Below, piece after piece: positions 56,507 to 64,000 of a stretch of DNA of 64,000 bases. The notes beneath the pieces were generated by a model. That model saw only the letters and a list, made by a program, of their open reading frames with translations, did no database searches and was not told the origin of the DNA. This DNA comes from Phycisphaerales bacterium (lineage in GTDB: Bacteria > Planctomycetota > Phycisphaerae > Phycisphaerales > UBA1924), in the NCBI GenBank assembly GCA_020427635.1, contig JAGQOH010000009.1, forward strand, positions 1 to 64,000, read 5' to 3'. Numbering within the stretch: position 1 is the stretch's first letter; each line of letters starts with the position of its first letter. The translations under genes were made by a program, and so were the position numbers.

Positions 56507-57847
56507 ATGACCCGTCGGACAACTTGCACAGGCCTTTTGTTCGCCTTGCTCGCCGCCCCCGCTTTCGCGGACGGTTTTGCGCCACACGAAGCGGTCATCC
56601 GCATCGTGCCCGGCGCATCGATCGACGACATCAACGCGGACCTTGGCACCACAGTCATTGATTCAATCCCGCGAGAGCGCACCTACCTCCTCCACGTGCC
56701 CGACGGCTTGAACGAAGAGCAGTTCGAAGAAATGCTCGAGCACGACCCGCGCATTCAGAGCGCCGAACTAAACGACGAAGCCGGTACGCCCGGCGGCCAG
56801 ACACAGAGCTTCTACCTGGGCGTCGCCCCCGCAGCCTTTGACGAACAGTACACGTGGAACACGGTCGTGCCGGGTGGCATCTCGGGCTCTTCAAACGGCG
56901 CCGGTGTCATCGTCGCGATCATCGACACGGGCATCGACGCGACTCATCCCATCTTCGCGGGCCACACCATCCTGCAGGGCGTCGACTTGCTGGACAACGA
57001 CGACCTACCCGATGACACCGCCGACGGCATCGACAACGATGATGATTCCTTCATTGATGAAATGCATGGGCACGGCACTTTCCAGTCGGCACTGATTGCA
57101 CAACTCGCGCCGGGCGCGACCTTGTTGCCCATTCGCGCGCTCGACAGCGATGGCCAGGGCAGCGCATTCACCATCGCCAAGGCGATCTACGCCGCGATTG
57201 ATGGCGGCGCAGACGTCATCAACATGAGCTTGGCGATGAGCTACCGCAACGAGATCATTGAGCACGCCATTGAGCACGCAACCCGCGATGGCATCCTGGT
57301 CGTCGCCTCGGCGGGGAATCGCGGCGGTGATCGCAAGCTCTATCCCGCGGGATTCTCCGACGTCATCGCAGTCGCGTCCACTGATGCTGACGATGTCCTG
57401 AGCTCGTTCAGTTGCTACGGATCGCACATCGACCTCTGCGCACCTGGCAGCGCGTTGGTCAGCGCGGTGCCGGCTGGCGCGTTTGGTCAGTCAGATGGCA
57501 CCAGCGGCGCCGCCGCCCTCGTCAGCGCCACCGCCGCGGTCATGAAGAGTGCAAACACCCATTTGAGTCGTTCTGCACTGAAACAACGCCTGCTGCATTC
57601 GTGTGTTGACATCTCGGCGCACAATCAGTCCATCGCACAGAAGATCGGTGCCGGAAGGCTCGACCTCACCACGTCCTTGGATACCGCCATCGGCAATGGT
57701 GACATCAACCTCGATGGCGTCACGAACTACGATGACCTGACGCTCCTGCTTTACGCATGGGGCAGCGACGACGAAGCCGCGGACGTCAATCTCGATGGGG
57801 TCGTTGGCTACACAGACCTCATGCTGCTCCTGGCGCACATTCACTAA
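56507..57847 (+). CDS. secreted subtilisin-like serine protease with degenerate dockerin-like C-terminus
   Basis: The product is 446 residues. A signal peptide (CTGLLFALLAAPAFAD) is followed by an I9-like propeptide (about 22-95) and an S8 catalytic domain with Asp140 (AIIDTGIDATHP), His189 (HGHGTFQSALIA), oxyanion Asn271 (ASAGNRGG) and Ser333 (DGTSGAAALVSA). The usual GTSMAAP is GTSGAAA here. Acidic EF-hand-like loops lie between Asp140 and His189 (DNDDLPDD, DNDDDSFIDE). The C-terminus has two short EF-hand repeats (GDINLDGVTNYDDL and DVNLDGVVGYTDL). The ATG at 56507 has GAGAGG seven bases upstream. It is last in the sigma/regulator/CHAT/subtilase set and convergent with the 46-haem cytochrome gene. 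Confidence 0.93.
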   Translation: MTRRTTCTGLLFALLAAPAFADGFAPHEAVIRIVPGASIDDINADLGTTVIDSIPRERTYLLHVPDGLNEEQFEEMLEHDPRIQSAELNDEAGTPGGQTQSFYLGVAPAAFDEQYTWNTVVPGGISGSSNGAGVIVAIIDTGIDATHPIFAGHTILQGVDLLDNDDLPDDTADGIDNDDDSFIDEMHGHGTFQSALIAQLAPGATLLPIRALDSDGQGSAFTIAKAIYAAIDGGADVINMSLAMSYRNEIIEHAIEHATRDGILVVASAGNRGGDRKLYPAGFSDVIAVASTDADDVLSSFSCYGSHIDLCAPGSALVSAVPAGAFGQSDGTSGAAALVSATAAVMKSANTHLSRSALKQRLLHSCVDISAHNQSIAQKIGAGRLDLTTSLDTAIGNGDINLDGVTNYDDLTLLLYAWGSDDEAADVNLDGVVGYTDLMLLLAHIH

Positions 57848-57874: not shown

Positions 57875-60800
57875 TCAGTGCCTCCCGTTCGGGTGGCAGC
57901 TGTAGCACGCCTGGCTCTGCCACACATAGCCGTTCACGTCACTGTGCTTATCGTCCATGCGACTCTGCCGGTGCTCGTGGCAATCAATACAACTGAACGC
58001 GGAGCTGCCTGGCACCGTGTGGCAATCCGAACAGTTCAGGTTCCGGTGCGCGCCGCTGTTGATTGGGAACTGGTGATTGAAGGTCGCCCCGCTCCACGTG
58101 CTCGTTGAGTGGTGGCACAACTCGCAGTCAGTCGGGAACCCGAAGTTGCCGTGGTCCGGATCCGTCGTCGCGTTGTAGTCCGCGATGTGGCACGACGCAC
58201 AGTCACTCGGCAGCCCGTGATACACATTGCTGCCATGGCACGCATTGCAGTTGTGCCCCGCGTGTCCGTTCGTAAGCGGGAACGCGGAGGTGTGCGTGTA
58301 GTTCGCGGTGTCCCACCGTGTCGTGTTATGGCACGCCTGACACACCGTGTTGAACCCAGCCGAAGCATGCCGCGGATCGGTCGTCGCCGTGTAATCATCA
58401 TTGTGACACGCATTGCACTGCGTCGACAGACCGGTGTACACCCCTCCCACGTGGCAATCAGTGCAATCGAGCCCCGCGTGCCCATTGGTCAGCGGGAATG
58501 ACGAAGGATGGCTAAATGTTGCGCCCTGCCACGTGTTGTTCGAGTGGTGACAGATTTCGCAATCGGTACTGAACCCGTTCGTCTGGTGGTTCGGATTCGT
58601 CGTGCCCTGATAGTCCGCCAAGTGGCACGTCACACAGTCACTCGGCAACCCGTGATACACATTGCTGCCGTGACACGCGTTGCAGTTGTGCCCCGCATGT
58701 CCGCCCGTGAGCGGGAATGCGCTCGTGTGCGTGTATGCCGCAGTATCCCATCGTGTCGTGTTGTGACACGCTTGGCACACGGTGTTGAATCCAGCAGAGG
58801 CATGCCGCGGATCCGTCGTCGCCGTGTAATCATCATTGTGACACGCATTGCACTGCGTCGACAGCCCGGTATACACACCGCCCACGTGGCAATCAAAGCA
58901 ATCCAGCCCACTGTGCCCATTGGTCAGCGGGAAGCTCGCCGGGTGCGAGAAGTTCGCGCCGTTCCAAGTGTTCACAGACATGTGGCAAAGCGCACAGTCC
59001 GTACCGAAACCACTTGTCGTGTGATTCGGATTCGTCGTGCCCTGGTAATCCGCCAAGTGGCAATCCACGCAGTCACTTGGCAACCCGTGATACACGTTGG
59101 TGCCGTGGCACGTGTTGCAATTGTGCCCAGCATGCCTGCCGACGAGCGGGAAGGCAGAGGTGTGCGTGTACGCCGCGCTCCCCCACGTCGAGGTGTTGTG
59201 ACACGCCTGACATGTCGTGTTGAAGCCGGCGGATGAGTGCCGCGGATCCGTCGTCGCCGTGTAGTCATCGTTGTGGCATGCGTTGCACTGCGTCGACAGG
59301 CCGGTGTACACACCGCCCACGTGGCAGTCAAAGCAATCCAGCCCACCGTGACCGTTGGTCAGCGGGAACGATGACGGGTGATTGAATGTGGCGCCTGTCC
59401 ACCGTGTTGTGTTGTGACATTGATCACAATCAGTATTGAACCCGCTCGTCGAGTGGTTCGGGTTCGTAGTGCCTTGATAGTCCGCCAAGTGACAGTTCAC
59501 GCAATCACTCGACAGCCCCGTGTACACACCACCCAAGTGGCAATCGCTGCAGTCCAGCCCGCCGTGGCCGCCCGTCAACGGAAAGGCCGACGTGTGGTTG
59601 AAATTCACACCCGTCCAACCGCTGGTCGTGTGGCAGTCATCGCAGGTCGTACTGAAACCCGCCGCCCCGTGGTTCGGGTTGGTGGTCGCGTTGTAGTCTC
59701 CTTGGTGACATGCGGAGCACGAAGTCGAGAGGCCCGTGTACACGCCGCCTGTGTGGCAATCTTGGCAATCAAGACCACTGTGGCCCGCCGTTAACGGGAA
59801 GGTCGACGGGTGATCGAAGTTGGCGCCGCGCCAACGCTGCGTCGTGTGACATACCTCGCAGTCGGTATTGAACCCGCTGGTTGCGTGGTTCGGATTCGTC
59901 GTGCCCTGATAGTCCGCCAGGTGACACGTCACGCACTCACTCGACAGGCCCGTATACACGCCGCCGGTATGGCAGTCCTGGCAGTCCAAGCCGGCATGCC
60001 CCTGCGACAGCGGGAACGCCTGCGTGTGGTTGAAGTCCACACCTGTCCAACCATTGATCGTGTGGCACTCCTCGCAATTCGTGCTGAACCCAGCCGCATT
60101 GTGATTCGGGTTCGTCGTGCCACTGAAGTCGTCACTGTGACACGAAGCGCACGCCGTCGACAACCCGCTATACCCTGAGGGCGCAAAGCCTGACAAGGTC
60201 ACGGGCCCAAGGCCGCCGCCCACCGTGTGGCAGTCTGCGCACGCAAGCCCAGCGTGCCCGCCGCTCAAGGGGAAGCTCGCCGGGTGATTGAACTGGGCCC
60301 CCTCCCACCGCTGAATCGTGTGGCAGAGGTCGCAGTCCGTGCTGAATCCGCTCGCGGTGTGATTCGGACTGTTCGTCGCCTGGTAATCCGGCAAGTGACA
60401 CGTGACACAGTCACTCGACAGCCCGGTATACACACCGCCGGTGTGGCAATCGAAGCAGTCCAGCCCGTGGTGCCCGCCGTTGAGCGGGAAGGCCGCGGTG
60501 TGGACGAAGTTCGCACCCGTCCAGCCAGTGGTGTTGTGGCATTGCTCGCAGTCAGTCGGGAAACCTGCTGCAGCGTGATTCGGACTATTCGTGCTCTGGA
60601 AGTCGCTCAGGTGGCACGCCACGCAATCTGTCGACAAGCCACCAAAGCCATTCCCAACGTGGCAATCGTCGCAGCGCAACCCACCGTGCGCCGCGGTGAG
60701 CGGGAACGATGATGGGTGCGTGAACGAAATCGCGCCCTCCCAGGCCAGCGCCGTGTGACAGTCCTGGCAGTTCGTGCCGAATCCAACGGAATCATGGTCC

Positions 60801-61381
60801 GGATCCGTCGTGCGCACATACGCATCCAAGTGGCACGACTGGCACGTCGTATCCAAGGGCAGAAACACGCCCGACTCCGCCCCCTCGTGGCACATGTAGC
60901 ACTCAGCGCCCGCGTGTGCGCCAATCAATGGGAATCGCGTGCGGTTGTGCGCTGCGATTGCGTCATTTGGACGCCACGTATCCTCCGTGTGGCATCGATC
61001 ACACGATGGCCCAAGGTGTCCCAAGTGAACATCCACGTGGCAGCCCGCGCACCCCTTGGCCGCAAACTGCGTCACGGGCCCACGGTCGTTGTGGCACAGC
61101 AAACACTGCGCACTCTGGTGCGAGCCGGTCAACGGCACACCAGTTTCCGCCTCGTGATCAAACACAAAGTCAGGACGCAACGTATTCCAGTCCGTGCCCA
61201 TGTGGCACAGCGTGCAATCCGCCGGGAAGGTGTCGTGCGGCACCACCGGGCCAAGACTCTCATCCCAGCCCTGGCGCAAGTGAATGCGACTGCAGGACGC
61301 CCAAATCGCAAGCAAGGCGATCAGGGCGCAGGTGCGTGCGCGACGGGCGGCTCTGGCGTTTGATGCGTCAGTGTGTTTCAT
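57875..61381 (-). CDS. giant multihaem c-type cytochrome, 46 CxxCH motifs
   Basis: The product is 1168 residues with 46 CxxCH motifs by my count, about one haem per 25 residues. The N-terminus has a signal sequence (RTCALIALLAIWASCS) whose cysteine could be a non-canonical lipidation site. Four haem motifs near the N-terminus are followed by 13 similar three-haem units of about 67-73 residues and three C-terminal motifs. Each unit follows GLxCxDCH…GVYxGLSxxCxxCH…NPNH…GFxTxCxxCH…W…F.H..…FPLTxGH, and the histidines outside CxxCH could be distal haem ligands. Three 435-bp copies are nearly identical. It starts five bases after the beta-barrel gene and probably sits at the cell surface as a molecular wire. 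Confidence 0.95.
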   Translation of the reverse strand: MKHTDASNARAARRARTCALIALLAIWASCSRIHLRQGWDESLGPVVPHDTFPADCTLCHMGTDWNTLRPDFVFDHEAETGVPLTGSHQSAQCLLCHNDRGPVTQFAAKGCAGCHVDVHLGHLGPSCDRCHTEDTWRPNDAIAAHNRTRFPLIGAHAGAECYMCHEGAESGVFLPLDTTCQSCHLDAYVRTTDPDHDSVGFGTNCQDCHTALAWEGAISFTHPSSFPLTAAHGGLRCDDCHVGNGFGGLSTDCVACHLSDFQSTNSPNHAAAGFPTDCEQCHNTTGWTGANFVHTAAFPLNGGHHGLDCFDCHTGGVYTGLSSDCVTCHLPDYQATNSPNHTASGFSTDCDLCHTIQRWEGAQFNHPASFPLSGGHAGLACADCHTVGGGLGPVTLSGFAPSGYSGLSTACASCHSDDFSGTTNPNHNAAGFSTNCEECHTINGWTGVDFNHTQAFPLSQGHAGLDCQDCHTGGVYTGLSSECVTCHLADYQGTTNPNHATSGFNTDCEVCHTTQRWRGANFDHPSTFPLTAGHSGLDCQDCHTGGVYTGLSTSCSACHQGDYNATTNPNHGAAGFSTTCDDCHTTSGWTGVNFNHTSAFPLTGGHGGLDCSDCHLGGVYTGLSSDCVNCHLADYQGTTNPNHSTSGFNTDCDQCHNTTRWTGATFNHPSSFPLTNGHGGLDCFDCHVGGVYTGLSTQCNACHNDDYTATTDPRHSSAGFNTTCQACHNTSTWGSAAYTHTSAFPLVGRHAGHNCNTCHGTNVYHGLPSDCVDCHLADYQGTTNPNHTTSGFGTDCALCHMSVNTWNGANFSHPASFPLTNGHSGLDCFDCHVGGVYTGLSTQCNACHNDDYTATTDPRHASAGFNTVCQACHNTTRWDTAAYTHTSAFPLTGGHAGHNCNACHGSNVYHGLPSDCVTCHLADYQGTTNPNHQTNGFSTDCEICHHSNNTWQGATFSHPSSFPLTNGHAGLDCTDCHVGGVYTGLSTQCNACHNDDYTATTDPRHASAGFNTVCQACHNTTRWDTANYTHTSAFPLTNGHAGHNCNACHGSNVYHGLPSDCASCHIADYNATTDPDHGNFGFPTDCELCHHSTSTWSGATFNHQFPINSGAHRNLNCSDCHTVPGSSAFSCIDCHEHRQSRMDDKHSDVNGYVWQSQACYSCHPNGRH
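58045..59349 (-). repeat. three tandem 435-bp repeats within the 46-haem cytochrome gene
   Basis: A 145-codon unit carrying six CxxCH motifs is repeated three times in register (anchor positions 58369, 58804 and 59239, each 435 bases apart). Similarity at the DNA level is high, including third positions, so duplication is recent. Unit edges are approximate. Each unit is itself two diverged three-haem repeats. Confidence 0.9.
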
Positions 61382-61386
61382 GGTGT

Positions 61387-63087
61387 TCAGAACCGATGTG
61401 AGAGGTACAAACCAATCGTGTACACGTCGTCTTCTTCACCGAAGTAGTAATCGCCGGTCACATCGACGTACCACTTACCCAGATACCAACTCAGCCCGCC
61501 ACGCACCAGATTGCGCACGTGGGTGCTCTTGCCACTGACGGCCGTGGCGCCGTCGTAGTTGAAAATTTCGTAGCCGAAGTACCCATTAATGTCATTGATC
61601 TGGTGGCGCAGCTCGGCTCGAAGCCCCGTGCCTGAGTTGAAGTTGCCGTCCACGAAGAACACCGCGGCGCGCAGCGCAGGAAGGTCTTCACCCAACGCTG
61701 ACCAATCTGCGGTCAAATCGCCGCTTGAGCCGCTGTTCGTGTCGTCTTGCCACAGGTCATAGTTCGCCGTCACGCGCAAGATCTTGTTGAGCTTCGCCCA
61801 TGCCGAGAAGCTGCCGCGATCGACCTGCCCATTTTCGATGATCTCAACGGGCAGCAGGCGATAGTCCGAGCGCTCCAGCTCAGGCCACCGGAAGCGTGAG
61901 TACCCCACCGAGCCGCCGATGTTCCTCGTGGGCGTATAGCGCACCTGCGCCCAGAACTCCGTAAGTTCGACACCACTGCCCTTGATCTCATCATCGCTCG
62001 TGTAGATGTCCGCGCGGAACGACCCGAACAACCACCACTTGTCGCTGGGACGCCAGTTCATGCGCCCAAGCACCAAGTCTCGGTCTTCCTTGCCCTGGTG
62101 CCACGTCTTTTGATAGCCCAGCGTGGCAGACCCAAGCCCCGGCTTCTCTGTCTCATAGTTCACGAACACGTGGGCGCCGACATCGCCATCCCAATCGCGA
62201 TCGCGGTTGTTGCGCGGAATGATCGCCAGGCCCGTGCCGATCGTCCAGCCCTTGTCGAACTGCAGCGCTGCTTCAGCGCCATCGAGCAGCCCCAACTCCG
62301 GCAAGTAAATCGAATAGAACCGCCCCACTTCCGCGCGATACGACGCAAAGTCCTCGCCACCCCAGGCATACGACAACCGCTCCAATCGCCAGTCGCGCTC
62401 CGTCTCGCTGCCTCGCCCGCTGATCTCATTGCGATGCGCCGCCGCCTCGGCGTCAAAGCGCAAGCGGCCACCGTCGTGCAACAAGTTGCGCACCGTTAAC
62501 GTCGTGCCGAGTCGCCCGGTCATAAACGAACTGTCTCGACCAGACCCCGCATCATGGGTGTAGTGAGAGTTGAAGTAGATGCGCCCCGCGACCTTGATGG
62601 CGCGCTCCGCTGGCTTCTGACGATGCACCGGCGCAAGCAGTGGCTCGTCAGGCGAAATGTCGCTCAGGTCCGTCTCCCAAGGCGGATGCTCTGGCACGAC
62701 CGGCGTTTGCGCCGGCTGCTCCGCATCCGCGGGCTCCGGACTTTCCTCAGGCGGTGGCGCAAGCGGCACACGAATCTCGCCCGGCGTGCCAATCAACGGC
62801 ACTTCCACACCCACAGGCAGGTCCGCACGCGCACTGCTCGCCGAGACAATGTTGATCACCGTGACGATCGGATCGCTGCCGTCCGGAAACAGCCAAAGGT
62901 CCATGCCCGCATGGACGCCATCGAGCCTACCTTTATCGATAAACACACTCTGACCAGACGTCGACGTCACCACCACGCGCAACGGCTGATGCTCAGTATC
63001 AGCGCTCGCATCGTCGGCAAATGCCTGCGTCACCGCGAGCACCATGCTCAGCATGCACACGACCATCGGAAGCACAAACTTCTTCAT
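61387..63087 (-). CDS. outer-membrane beta-barrel protein of a porin-cytochrome type cluster
   Basis: The product is 566 residues. A signal peptide (LPMVVCMLSMVLAVTQAFAD) is followed by a small domain (about 35-105; VFIDKGRLDGVHAGMDLWLF) and a proline- and glutamate-rich linker. From about residue 175 come alternating aromatic/hydrophobic strands to the end, closing with YTIGLYLSHRF, the C-terminal phenylalanine of outer-membrane barrels. I estimate 20 or more strands. It is the middle gene of cytochrome/barrel/cytochrome; its ATG overlaps the upstream cytochrome stop by four bases, and the 46-haem gene follows five bases later. This order suggests the barrel sheathes a cytochrome through the outer membrane. 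Confidence 0.85.
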   Translation of the reverse strand: MKKFVLPMVVCMLSMVLAVTQAFADDASADTEHQPLRVVVTSTSGQSVFIDKGRLDGVHAGMDLWLFPDGSDPIVTVINIVSASSARADLPVGVEVPLIGTPGEIRVPLAPPPEESPEPADAEQPAQTPVVPEHPPWETDLSDISPDEPLLAPVHRQKPAERAIKVAGRIYFNSHYTHDAGSGRDSSFMTGRLGTTLTVRNLLHDGGRLRFDAEAAAHRNEISGRGSETERDWRLERLSYAWGGEDFASYRAEVGRFYSIYLPELGLLDGAEAALQFDKGWTIGTGLAIIPRNNRDRDWDGDVGAHVFVNYETEKPGLGSATLGYQKTWHQGKEDRDLVLGRMNWRPSDKWWLFGSFRADIYTSDDEIKGSGVELTEFWAQVRYTPTRNIGGSVGYSRFRWPELERSDYRLLPVEIIENGQVDRGSFSAWAKLNKILRVTANYDLWQDDTNSGSSGDLTADWSALGEDLPALRAAVFFVDGNFNSGTGLRAELRHQINDINGYFGYEIFNYDGATAVSGKSTHVRNLVRGGLSWYLGKWYVDVTGDYYFGEEDDVYTIGLYLSHRF

Positions 63088-64000
63088 TGCACCTTCCTAT
63101 CGCTCGAATGGAAGCCGTGACAGTCCTGGCACTCGTGGCCCAACGGCCGATACCGCGTAATCACCTGTCCGTTCGACGCCCGTGCCGGCCGATGGCACTG
63201 GCTGCACTCCAAACCAATGTGTTGCTCATCCAGTGGGAATCGTGAGTCGCGCTGGTGATCGAAGGTTGGCTGCTCAAACGTCGCCCGCTCGGTGTGGCAC
63301 CGCGCGCAGTCCACTTGACCGGCCTCCACGAACTGCCCCAGGTGCACATCCTCATGGCACGCTGCACACGCCGTCGAAGGCAGCTTGTAGCCTCGTCCTC
63401 GTACACCGCGCGCTGACCCGTGGCAATCCGCGCACTTTGCCTCAGCATGCGCGCCGATGAGCGCGTACCCAGTCCACTGCTCGTGCATGCTGCCGGTCCA
63501 CTCGATCGCATCGAAGGAATCAGTGGTGTGGCACCGCGCACACCCGTGCTTGCCATTGACCTGGAGCGGGCGACCCGGCTCATCAAACGCTCCGTCATGG
63601 ACATCTTCGTGGCACGCCGCGCAGTCCTGTGCTGTCCCCACAAACTCGCGCACGCCCGCCTTCTCGACGTGGCAACTGCGACACGCCACCGCTTGGTGAA
63701 TGCCGGTCAACGGGAACTTCGTCTGCTGGTGCTCAGCAATCGTGAAGTGCGTGGGCTCGAACGCCGTCGTCGTATGGCACGCGCTGCAGTCATCGCCAGA
63801 CGATGACGCCATGAATTGCCCTGCGTGCGGATCGTCATGGCATGCGGCACAGGACGTCGGCGTCTGTGCATACTGCACCACCTCATCTACTGCGGTATGA
63901 CATTCCGCGCACGTCACCGTGGCATGCACGCCGGTCAACGGGAAGTCGGTCTCTGTGTGGCGTTCGACATCAAACTTGCTTGGCGTGAAATGCATCGGGT
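63084..64000 (-). CDS. multihaem c-type cytochrome, 5' end outside the window
   Basis: At least 303 residues are present, with 11 CxxCH motifs visible (for example VTCAECHTA, SCAACHDDPH, CRSCHVEKA, CADCHGSARG, ECSQCHRPA, ECQDCHGFHS). The pattern of H..T.FPLTG.H before each cluster resembles that of the 46-haem protein, so the two are related. The frame is still open at the window edge and no signal peptide is seen, so more N-terminal sequence, probably with more haems, lies beyond 64000; the ATG at 63995 is unlikely to be the start. The stop overlaps the barrel start by four bases. It would be the periplasmic partner of the conduit. Confidence 0.9.
   Translation of the reverse strand, partial: PMHFTPSKFDVERHTETDFPLTGVHATVTCAECHTAVDEVVQYAQTPTSCAACHDDPHAGQFMASSSGDDCSACHTTTAFEPTHFTIAEHQQTKFPLTGIHQAVACRSCHVEKAGVREFVGTAQDCAACHEDVHDGAFDEPGRPLQVNGKHGCARCHTTDSFDAIEWTGSMHEQWTGYALIGAHAEAKCADCHGSARGVRGRGYKLPSTACAACHEDVHLGQFVEAGQVDCARCHTERATFEQPTFDHQRDSRFPLDEQHIGLECSQCHRPARASNGQVITRYRPLGHECQDCHGFHSSDRKVQ

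What the first reader, a model, noticed from the sequence alone, without database searches (positions are those of the whole stretch)
57875..64000. Cytochrome - outer-membrane barrel - giant cytochrome operon: a probable electron conduit
Seen: three minus-strand genes with a four-base overlap and a five-base gap: a multihaem cytochrome (at least 11 CxxCH), a beta-barrel ending in phenylalanine, and a 46-CxxCH cytochrome. Known: porin-cytochrome complexes (MtrCAB, PCC of Geobacter) pair a periplasmic multihaem protein, a barrel and a surface cytochrome. Inference: this planctomycete-like bacterium moves electrons across its outer membrane with a system of different sequence from Mtr or Pcc.
Basis: partly seen in the sequence, partly recalled or inferred. 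Interest (0 to 1): 0.85.

Follow-up and report, generated by a model that had tools for sequence, protein, structure and literature searches.

The report
Modular electron wire through cell envelope
A planctomycete operon appears to encode a complete electrical path from the cell interior, through both membranes, to a protein "wire" outside; it resembles a poorly understood known type (PCC3) but carries its own flavin/iron-sulfur input protein and an outer wire whose length varies in fixed haem-bearing modules.

Summary
The operon also runs past the window edge: a 756-aa flavin/4Fe-4S protein ending in a five-helix cytochrome-b-like domain, a 23-haem cytochrome with an N-terminal anchor or signal, a predicted 22-strand barrel, and a 46-haem lipoprotein-like cytochrome. 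The same gene set was complete in 64 of 72 loci (Planctomycetota plus one Bacteroidota plasmid; one locus is a duplicate record). All but one of the incomplete loci meet a contig end. The barrel is not MtrB/PioB. Composition, gene order and the inner-membrane motif (WX3HX13H twice, [ST]GXXG) match the published but functionally untested "PCC3" conduit, so "a new kind, unlike known Pcc" is only partly right. Homology to proteobacterial PCC3 could not be tested. Two features look new: the inner-membrane protein is joined to (or encoded beside) a flavin/Fe-S module, and the outer cytochrome follows a strict building rule. That rule is an invariant 7-haem head, then 3-haem (72 aa) or 2-haem (48 aa) cassettes, then a 3-haem cap. 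Its haem number (7-46) changed at least 31 times on the barrel tree, against at least 10 for the periplasmic cytochrome (20-29). Most likely it is a trans-envelope electron conduit; I favour the outward direction.

The parts
57875..61381 (-). MHC2: 1168-aa, 46-haem, lipoprotein-like outer (extracellular) cytochrome
   Evidence: Cytochrome_C7 and TIGR04257 nanowire_3heme (55.7 bits, cut-off 40)
60755..61381 (-). MHC2 7-haem head, aa 1-209, CxxCH spacing 37-18-16-34-19-25; lipobox-like Cys30
   Evidence: spacing nearly invariant across the family (occasional changes of 1-2 residues)
58112..60754 (-). MHC2 repeat array: 12 cassettes of 3 haems (mostly 72 aa), each with three non-CxxCH His (FxH, GGH, NPNH/DPRH), candidate distal ligands
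   Evidence: DNA-level tandem repeats 435 and 216 bp
57878..58111 (-). MHC2 3-haem C-cap, aa 1091-1168 (stop codon 57875-57877)
61387..63087 (-). Outer-membrane barrel, 566 aa, no match to MtrB/PioB or any curated family
62770..62988 (-). Small N-terminal beta (SH3-like) domain of the barrel protein, aa 34-106
   Evidence: AF2 model; weak MreC/FlgT_C resemblance
61390..62595 (-). 22-strand beta-barrel, aa 165-566, pLDDT mostly about 90
   Evidence: outer-membrane barrels are the best fold matches
63084..64000 (-). MHC1: C-terminal 304 aa of the 682-aa 23-haem periplasmic cytochrome; continues to contig position 65132 (L002:8133)

Best explanation
The operon encodes a PCC3-like electron conduit across the whole envelope. 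Proposed steps: (1) gene0, beyond the window edge, takes electrons from NAD(P)H or a low-potential Fe-S donor in the cytoplasm through FAD and two Fe-S clusters; (2) its five-helix C-terminal domain passes them across the inner membrane through two haems b; (3) the 23-haem MHC1 carries them across the periplasm; (4) MHC1 and the 7-haem head of MHC2 meet in or at the 22-strand barrel; (5) the trihaem array of MHC2 extends the path outside the cell to an acceptor such as Fe(III)/Mn(IV) oxide, humic matter or another cell. Shown: the genes, their conserved co-occurrence, motifs, haem counts, modular rule and barrel model. Inferred: haem loading, docking, surface exposure, direction and substrate.
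For: All four components are complete in 64 of 72 loci (one duplicate); 7 of the 8 incomplete loci run into a contig end. The same set, with the inner-membrane protein and flavoprotein as separate genes, occurs on the Emticicia oligotrophica plasmid (MHC1 31% identical with 23 haems; MHC2 38% with 40; barrel E 1e-8) and in the distant planctomycete loci L100-L105. WX3HX13H occurs twice and [ST]GXXG once, on predicted helices 3, 5 and 4, as published for PCC3/PCC4 inner-membrane proteins (PMC5566968). The barrel has 22 strands. A lipobox-like Cys is present in 66 of 69 outer cytochromes. The outer cytochrome has 25.4 aa per haem and the periplasmic one 29.7, inside the PCC3 range 22-39. In the 7-haem clade a conserved 11-haem lipoprotein-like cytochrome gene usually follows, as if head plus long array and head plus terminal cytochrome were alternatives. 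Direction: a cytoplasmic flavin/Fe-S module joined to a two-haem-b membrane domain has the layout of NADPH oxidases and ferric reductases; electrons moving inward to NAD(P)+ would run against membrane potential (inference from general knowledge).
Against: No experiment on this system or on PCC3. Homology to proteobacterial PCC3 proteins was not testable here. The genome has aa3- and cbb3-type oxidases, so aerobic respiration fed by inward electrons is possible, and a genus-mate (OFTM399) comes from an Oslofjord tunnel study whose biofilms oxidise Fe and Mn. MHC2 could face the periplasm. Fold search of the inner-membrane domain found no clear relative.
Confidence: 0.8

Rival explanations
1. 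Same conduit run inward: extracellular Fe(II), Mn(II) or partner-cell electrons enter through MHC2, barrel and MHC1 and reach quinones or oxidases through the b-haem domain, as proposed for PCC3 in iron oxidisers.
For: PCC3 is discussed as an iron-oxidation candidate; the genus-mate is from a tunnel with Fe/Mn-oxidising biofilms; the genome has aa3- and cbb3-type oxidases.
Against: The inner-membrane protein is joined to an FAD/NAD(P)/Fe-S module, not obviously quinone-linked; reducing NAD(P)+ from Fe(II) by this route would be uphill (inference).
Confidence: 0.3
2. The giant cytochrome is mainly a charge store (haem capacitor) and not a wire; the array length sets capacity.
For: Haem number varies 7-46 with a constant head; a capacitor role is suggested for PCC3 cytochromes in PMC10734462.
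Against: An invariant head plus cassettes with the same 24 aa per haem fits a regular extended array equally well; in the 7-haem clade the array is absent and a separate 11-haem cytochrome gene usually follows.
Confidence: 0.15
3. The barrel is an ordinary solute porin that happens to be encoded with periplasmic cytochromes serving a soluble respiratory reductase.
For: Fold searches return generic porins and TonB-type receptors; no curated electron-conduit family matches the barrel.
Against: The barrel profile finds 47 strong places in 34 of 392 Planctomycetota genomes, and nearly all fetched loci carry the same cytochromes and inner-membrane protein; no reductase gene is in the operon.
Confidence: 0.05

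Closest known systems
PCC3 porin-cytochrome complex (Sideroxydans, Leptothrix and others; PMC5566968, PMC10734462, PMC12442390)
   Same: Outer MHC, porin, periplasmic MHC and five-helix inner-membrane protein in the same order; very low aa/haem ratio; 21-27-haem periplasmic MHC in Gallionellaceae (20-29 here); two WX3HX13H motifs and SGXXG.
   Different: Here the inner-membrane domain is joined to (or encoded beside) an FAD/NAD(P)/two-Fe-S module; the barrel has 22 predicted strands where PCC3 porins are predicted at up to 42; the outer MHC follows a head/cassette/cap rule; found here in Planctomycetota and one Bacteroidota plasmid, whereas PCC3 was reported from Alpha-, Beta- and Gammaproteobacteria.
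PCC4 (PMC5566968)
   Same: Porin, periplasmic MHCs, five-helix inner-membrane protein and Fe-S redox proteins; reported in some Planctomycetes.
   Different: PCC4 has no extracellular MHC and its MHCs have 4, 5 and 10 haems.
MtrCAB / MtoAB / PioAB
   Same: Periplasmic MHC, barrel and (Mtr) surface lipoprotein MHC.
   Different: No MtrB/PioB match; MHC1 reaches only 50 of 192 bits for the DmsE/MtrA family; far more haems; different inner-membrane partner.
TIGR04257 trihaem 'nanowire' cytochromes
   Same: MHC2 contains about ten matches to the trihaem c7-type domain.
   Different: Here the trihaem units are strung behind a 7-haem head in a barrel operon.

Membership tests
PCC3 porin-cytochrome complex | Cluster of outer MHC, outer-membrane porin, periplasmic MHC and inner-membrane protein, in this order | tested here: met
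   definition
PCC3 porin-cytochrome complex | Inner-membrane protein with five TM helices, WX3HX13H on TM3 and TM5, SGXXG on TM4 | tested here: met
   Ser is Thr in most members here
PCC3 porin-cytochrome complex | Very haem-rich MHCs, 22-39 aa per haem | tested here: met
   25.4 and 29.7 aa per haem (range)
PCC3 porin-cytochrome complex | Sequence homology of porin and MHCs to the proteobacterial PCC3 proteins | not tested
   No proteobacterial PCC3 sequence could be reached with the searches available
PCC3 porin-cytochrome complex | Porin with many predicted strands (up to 42) | tested here: inconclusive
   22 strands in the AF2 model; the published numbers are from other predictors
MtrCAB / MtoAB / PioAB | Barrel of the MtrB/PioB family (PF11854, TIGR03509) | tested here: not met
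   PF11854 has no hit in the whole genome
MtrCAB / MtoAB / PioAB | Decahaem DmsE/MtrA-family periplasmic cytochrome (TIGR03508) | tested here: not met
   23 haems; 50 bits against a cut-off of 192
Geobacter Pcc (OmbB-OmaB-OmcB) | OmbB-type barrel | not tested
   No OmbB model or sequence was compared directly; only general libraries were scanned
TIGR04257 trihaem c7-type domain (outer cytochrome only) | Match above curated cut-off | tested here: met
   55.7 bits against cut-off 40, 10 stretches

The most novel reading that the evidence does not exclude
A gram-negative envelope conduit wired directly to cytoplasmic NAD(P)H/Fe-S chemistry (in effect a cell-envelope-spanning NAD(P)H oxidase) whose extracellular arm is a haem filament of adjustable length: bacteria lengthen or shorten it by recombining 72-aa/3-haem and 48-aa/2-haem cassettes behind a fixed 7-haem docking head.
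Probability: 0.4. Interest if true: 0.78.

Novelty: new variant of a known kind. Interest (0 to 1): 0.58.

Why it matters
PCC3-type conduits are widely suspected of extracellular electron transfer but, in the papers read here, remain functionally untested. This work extends the same design to many Planctomycetota and to one Bacteroidota plasmid. It supplies an internal control: the periplasmic cytochrome stays at 20-29 haems while the outer one ranges over 7-46 in discrete modules. That makes the question of what sets the length of a biological wire directly testable. The attached flavin/Fe-S module gives a concrete hypothesis for where the electrons come from.

Tried and rejected
MtrB/PioB, DmsE/MtrA and OmcA/MtrC families: rejected or far below cut-off. 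Upstream nitrite or hydroxylamine reductase: not there; the upstream genes are a flavin/Fe-S/b-type protein and divergent ResB/CcsA. PDB sequence search with MHC1 and MHC2: no hit at E 0.01. Fold search of the inner-membrane domain: only unrelated helical bundles, best E 0.025, uninformative. MtrB-like barrels were not among the 50 rows shown for the barrel model, which proves nothing. Search for proteobacterial PCC3 through plasmids: only Methylophaga and Alteromonas inner-membrane homologues in clusters without an annotated porin; genome searches could not be centred outside Planctomycetota. First lipobox regular expression was faulty (0 of 69) and was replaced.

Full report
OBSERVATION. All stated facts hold: three minus-strand genes at 57875-61381, 61387-63087 and 63084-64000, a 4-base overlap, a 5-base gap, 46 CxxCH in the giant cytochrome, 11 CxxCH in the visible part of the first cytochrome, and a C-terminal Phe in the barrel. 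The contig runs to 74284 bases. Beyond the edge, the first cytochrome is complete with 682 aa and 23 CxxCH. Its GTG start overlaps by 4 bases the stop of a fourth gene of 756 aa (gene0, L002:8130-10400, minus strand). Divergently transcribed neighbours are a 393-aa protein, ResB-like and CcsA-like cytochrome c maturation proteins, then a dihaem MauG/CCP-like protein on the other strand.

PARTS. Gene0 has an N-terminal hydrophobic segment, two Fe-S motifs, a YpdA/thioredoxin-reductase-like FAD/NAD(P) domain and a C-terminal domain of about 300 aa. A representative (genus-mate L011) models as five membrane helices with WX3HX13H on helices 3 and 5 and a GxxG motif on helix 4. MHC1 starts with a hydrophobic anchor or signal and has 23 haem motifs. 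The barrel protein models as a small N-terminal beta domain, a disordered linker and a 22-strand barrel. MHC2 has a lipobox-like Cys; a Cys in a hydrophobic context was found in 66 of 69 relatives. In the window protein the -3 residue is Trp, which is not canonical.

CONSERVATION. In relatives, 5 of 121 genomes have the barrel. The genome-contig scan gave 19 loci, carrying planctomycete titles or, in three cases, only 'bacterium'. In 392 Planctomycetota genomes the profile gave 47 strong places in 34 genomes, several with two copies. Neighbourhoods were fetched and annotated: 64 of 72 loci (L056 duplicates L025) have gene0, two MHCs and the barrel. Seven of the other eight are cut by contig ends; L061 lacks the upstream half and is unexplained. 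A plasmid of Emticicia oligotrophica (Bacteroidota) carries the same set, with the inner-membrane protein and flavoprotein as separate genes and a fused ResB-CcsA in front. The distant planctomycete loci L100-L105 show the same split. ResB/CcsA-like genes were seen in 16 loci, a lower bound because flanks were limited.

MODULAR RULE. CxxCH spacing in MHC2 starts with 37-18-16-34-19-25 in nearly every member (7 haems). Then come cassettes of about 31-16-25 (72 aa, 3 haems) or 23-25 (48 aa, 2 haems), both 24 aa per haem, and then a 3-haem cap. Among complete proteins the totals are 7, 10, 13, 16, 19, 22, 25, 28, 34, 37, 40, 43 and 46 (all 3n+1). The six totals off the series (15, 17, 24) contain the 2-haem cassette. 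The window protein is 7 + 12x3 + 3. MHC1 has 20, 23, 26 or 29 haems in 64 of 65 cases. On the barrel tree MHC2 haem number changed at least 31 times and MHC1 at least 10 times. One clade keeps only the 7-haem head; there an 11-haem lipoprotein-like cytochrome, about 60% identical among members, usually follows downstream. This suggests two ways to continue the path beyond the same head.

WHAT IT WORKS LIKE. He et al. 2017 (PMC5566968) described PCC3: porin, outer MHC (median 34 haems), periplasmic MHC (median 21), and a five-helix protein with WX3HX13H on TM3 and TM5 and SGXXG on TM4. Gallionellaceae PCC3 has 21-27-haem periplasmic and 10-35-haem outer cytochromes (PMC10734462). Its four genes are listed in the same order as here (PMC12442390). 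It has not been functionally verified. The present system matches in composition, order, inner-membrane motif and haem density. It is not MtrB/PioB-based. I call it PCC3-like and not PCC3, because homology to proteobacterial PCC3 could not be tested.

DIRECTION. The FAD/NAD(P)/Fe-S module joined to a two-b-haem membrane domain resembles the layout of NADPH oxidases and ferric reductases (general knowledge), so outward flow is favoured. The rival is inward flow. The genome has aa3- and cbb3-type oxidases (type judged from gene context by eye), and a genus-mate is from the Oslofjord tunnel study, where biofilms oxidise Fe and Mn (PMC10732223). That paper searched for porin-cytochrome complexes by known models; the passages read do not describe this operon.

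LITERATURE. The full-text searches made here found no description of this operon in Planctomycetota or Emticicia; the library is open-access only. PCC4 was reported in some Planctomycetes but lacks an outer MHC.

VERDICT. Real, conserved, most likely a complete trans-envelope electron conduit; a new variant of a known but untested kind.

Noticed in passing
L002:8130-10400 (gene0) and homologues: The second Fe-S motif is CVGHGxC...CP in most members: the second Cys is replaced by His, sometimes Val, Ile or Thr, suggesting a His-ligated or [3Fe-4S] cluster.
   Followed up: partly
L029:12308-15106, L070:5313-8177, L105:5655-8564 and others: A conserved 11-haem lipoprotein-like cytochrome of about 900 aa (19 complete copies, about 60% identical; partial match to ExtM) follows the 7-haem version of MHC2, and in L105 sits near a 10-haem one. 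Possibly related to undecahaem cytochromes such as UetJ, not tested.
   Followed up: partly
L030 (NC_018749.1, 78-90 kb): Emticicia oligotrophica plasmid pEMTOL02 carries the whole conduit plus a ResB-CcsA fusion: a cultured Bacteroidota carrier on a plasmid.
   Followed up: yes
L061: A barrel-MHC2 pair without gene0 and MHC1 in the 5 kb upstream, in a genome (G343) that has a complete copy elsewhere (L058).
   Followed up: no
L002:11808-14917: Divergent ResB-like and CcsA-like genes; the genome has three further Cytochrom_C_asm matches, so this maturation pair may be dedicated to the conduit.
   Followed up: partly
L002:14991-16418: Dihaem protein resembling the His-Xaa-Ser-system-associated MauG-like family (277 bits, cut-off 340).
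   Followed up: no
window:53696-56458 and 56507-57847: CHAT-domain protein with TPR repeats, followed by a subtilase with a dockerin-like C-terminus; ORFs of similar size, position and N-termini lie at the same place in the genus-mate (L007), convergent with the conduit operon.
   Followed up: no
L112, L113, L114 (G000 contigs C38 and C81): Other multihaem clusters in the genome: proteins with 8, 13, 11, 4, 5 and 6 CxxCH on C38, and 13, 13 and 9 on C81 beside an RND-type efflux-like gene.
   Followed up: no
L031 and L032: Methylophaga and Alteromonas plasmids carry homologues of the five-helix inner-membrane protein between a 2Fe-2S protein and a c-type cytochrome, without an annotated porin.
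   Followed up: no
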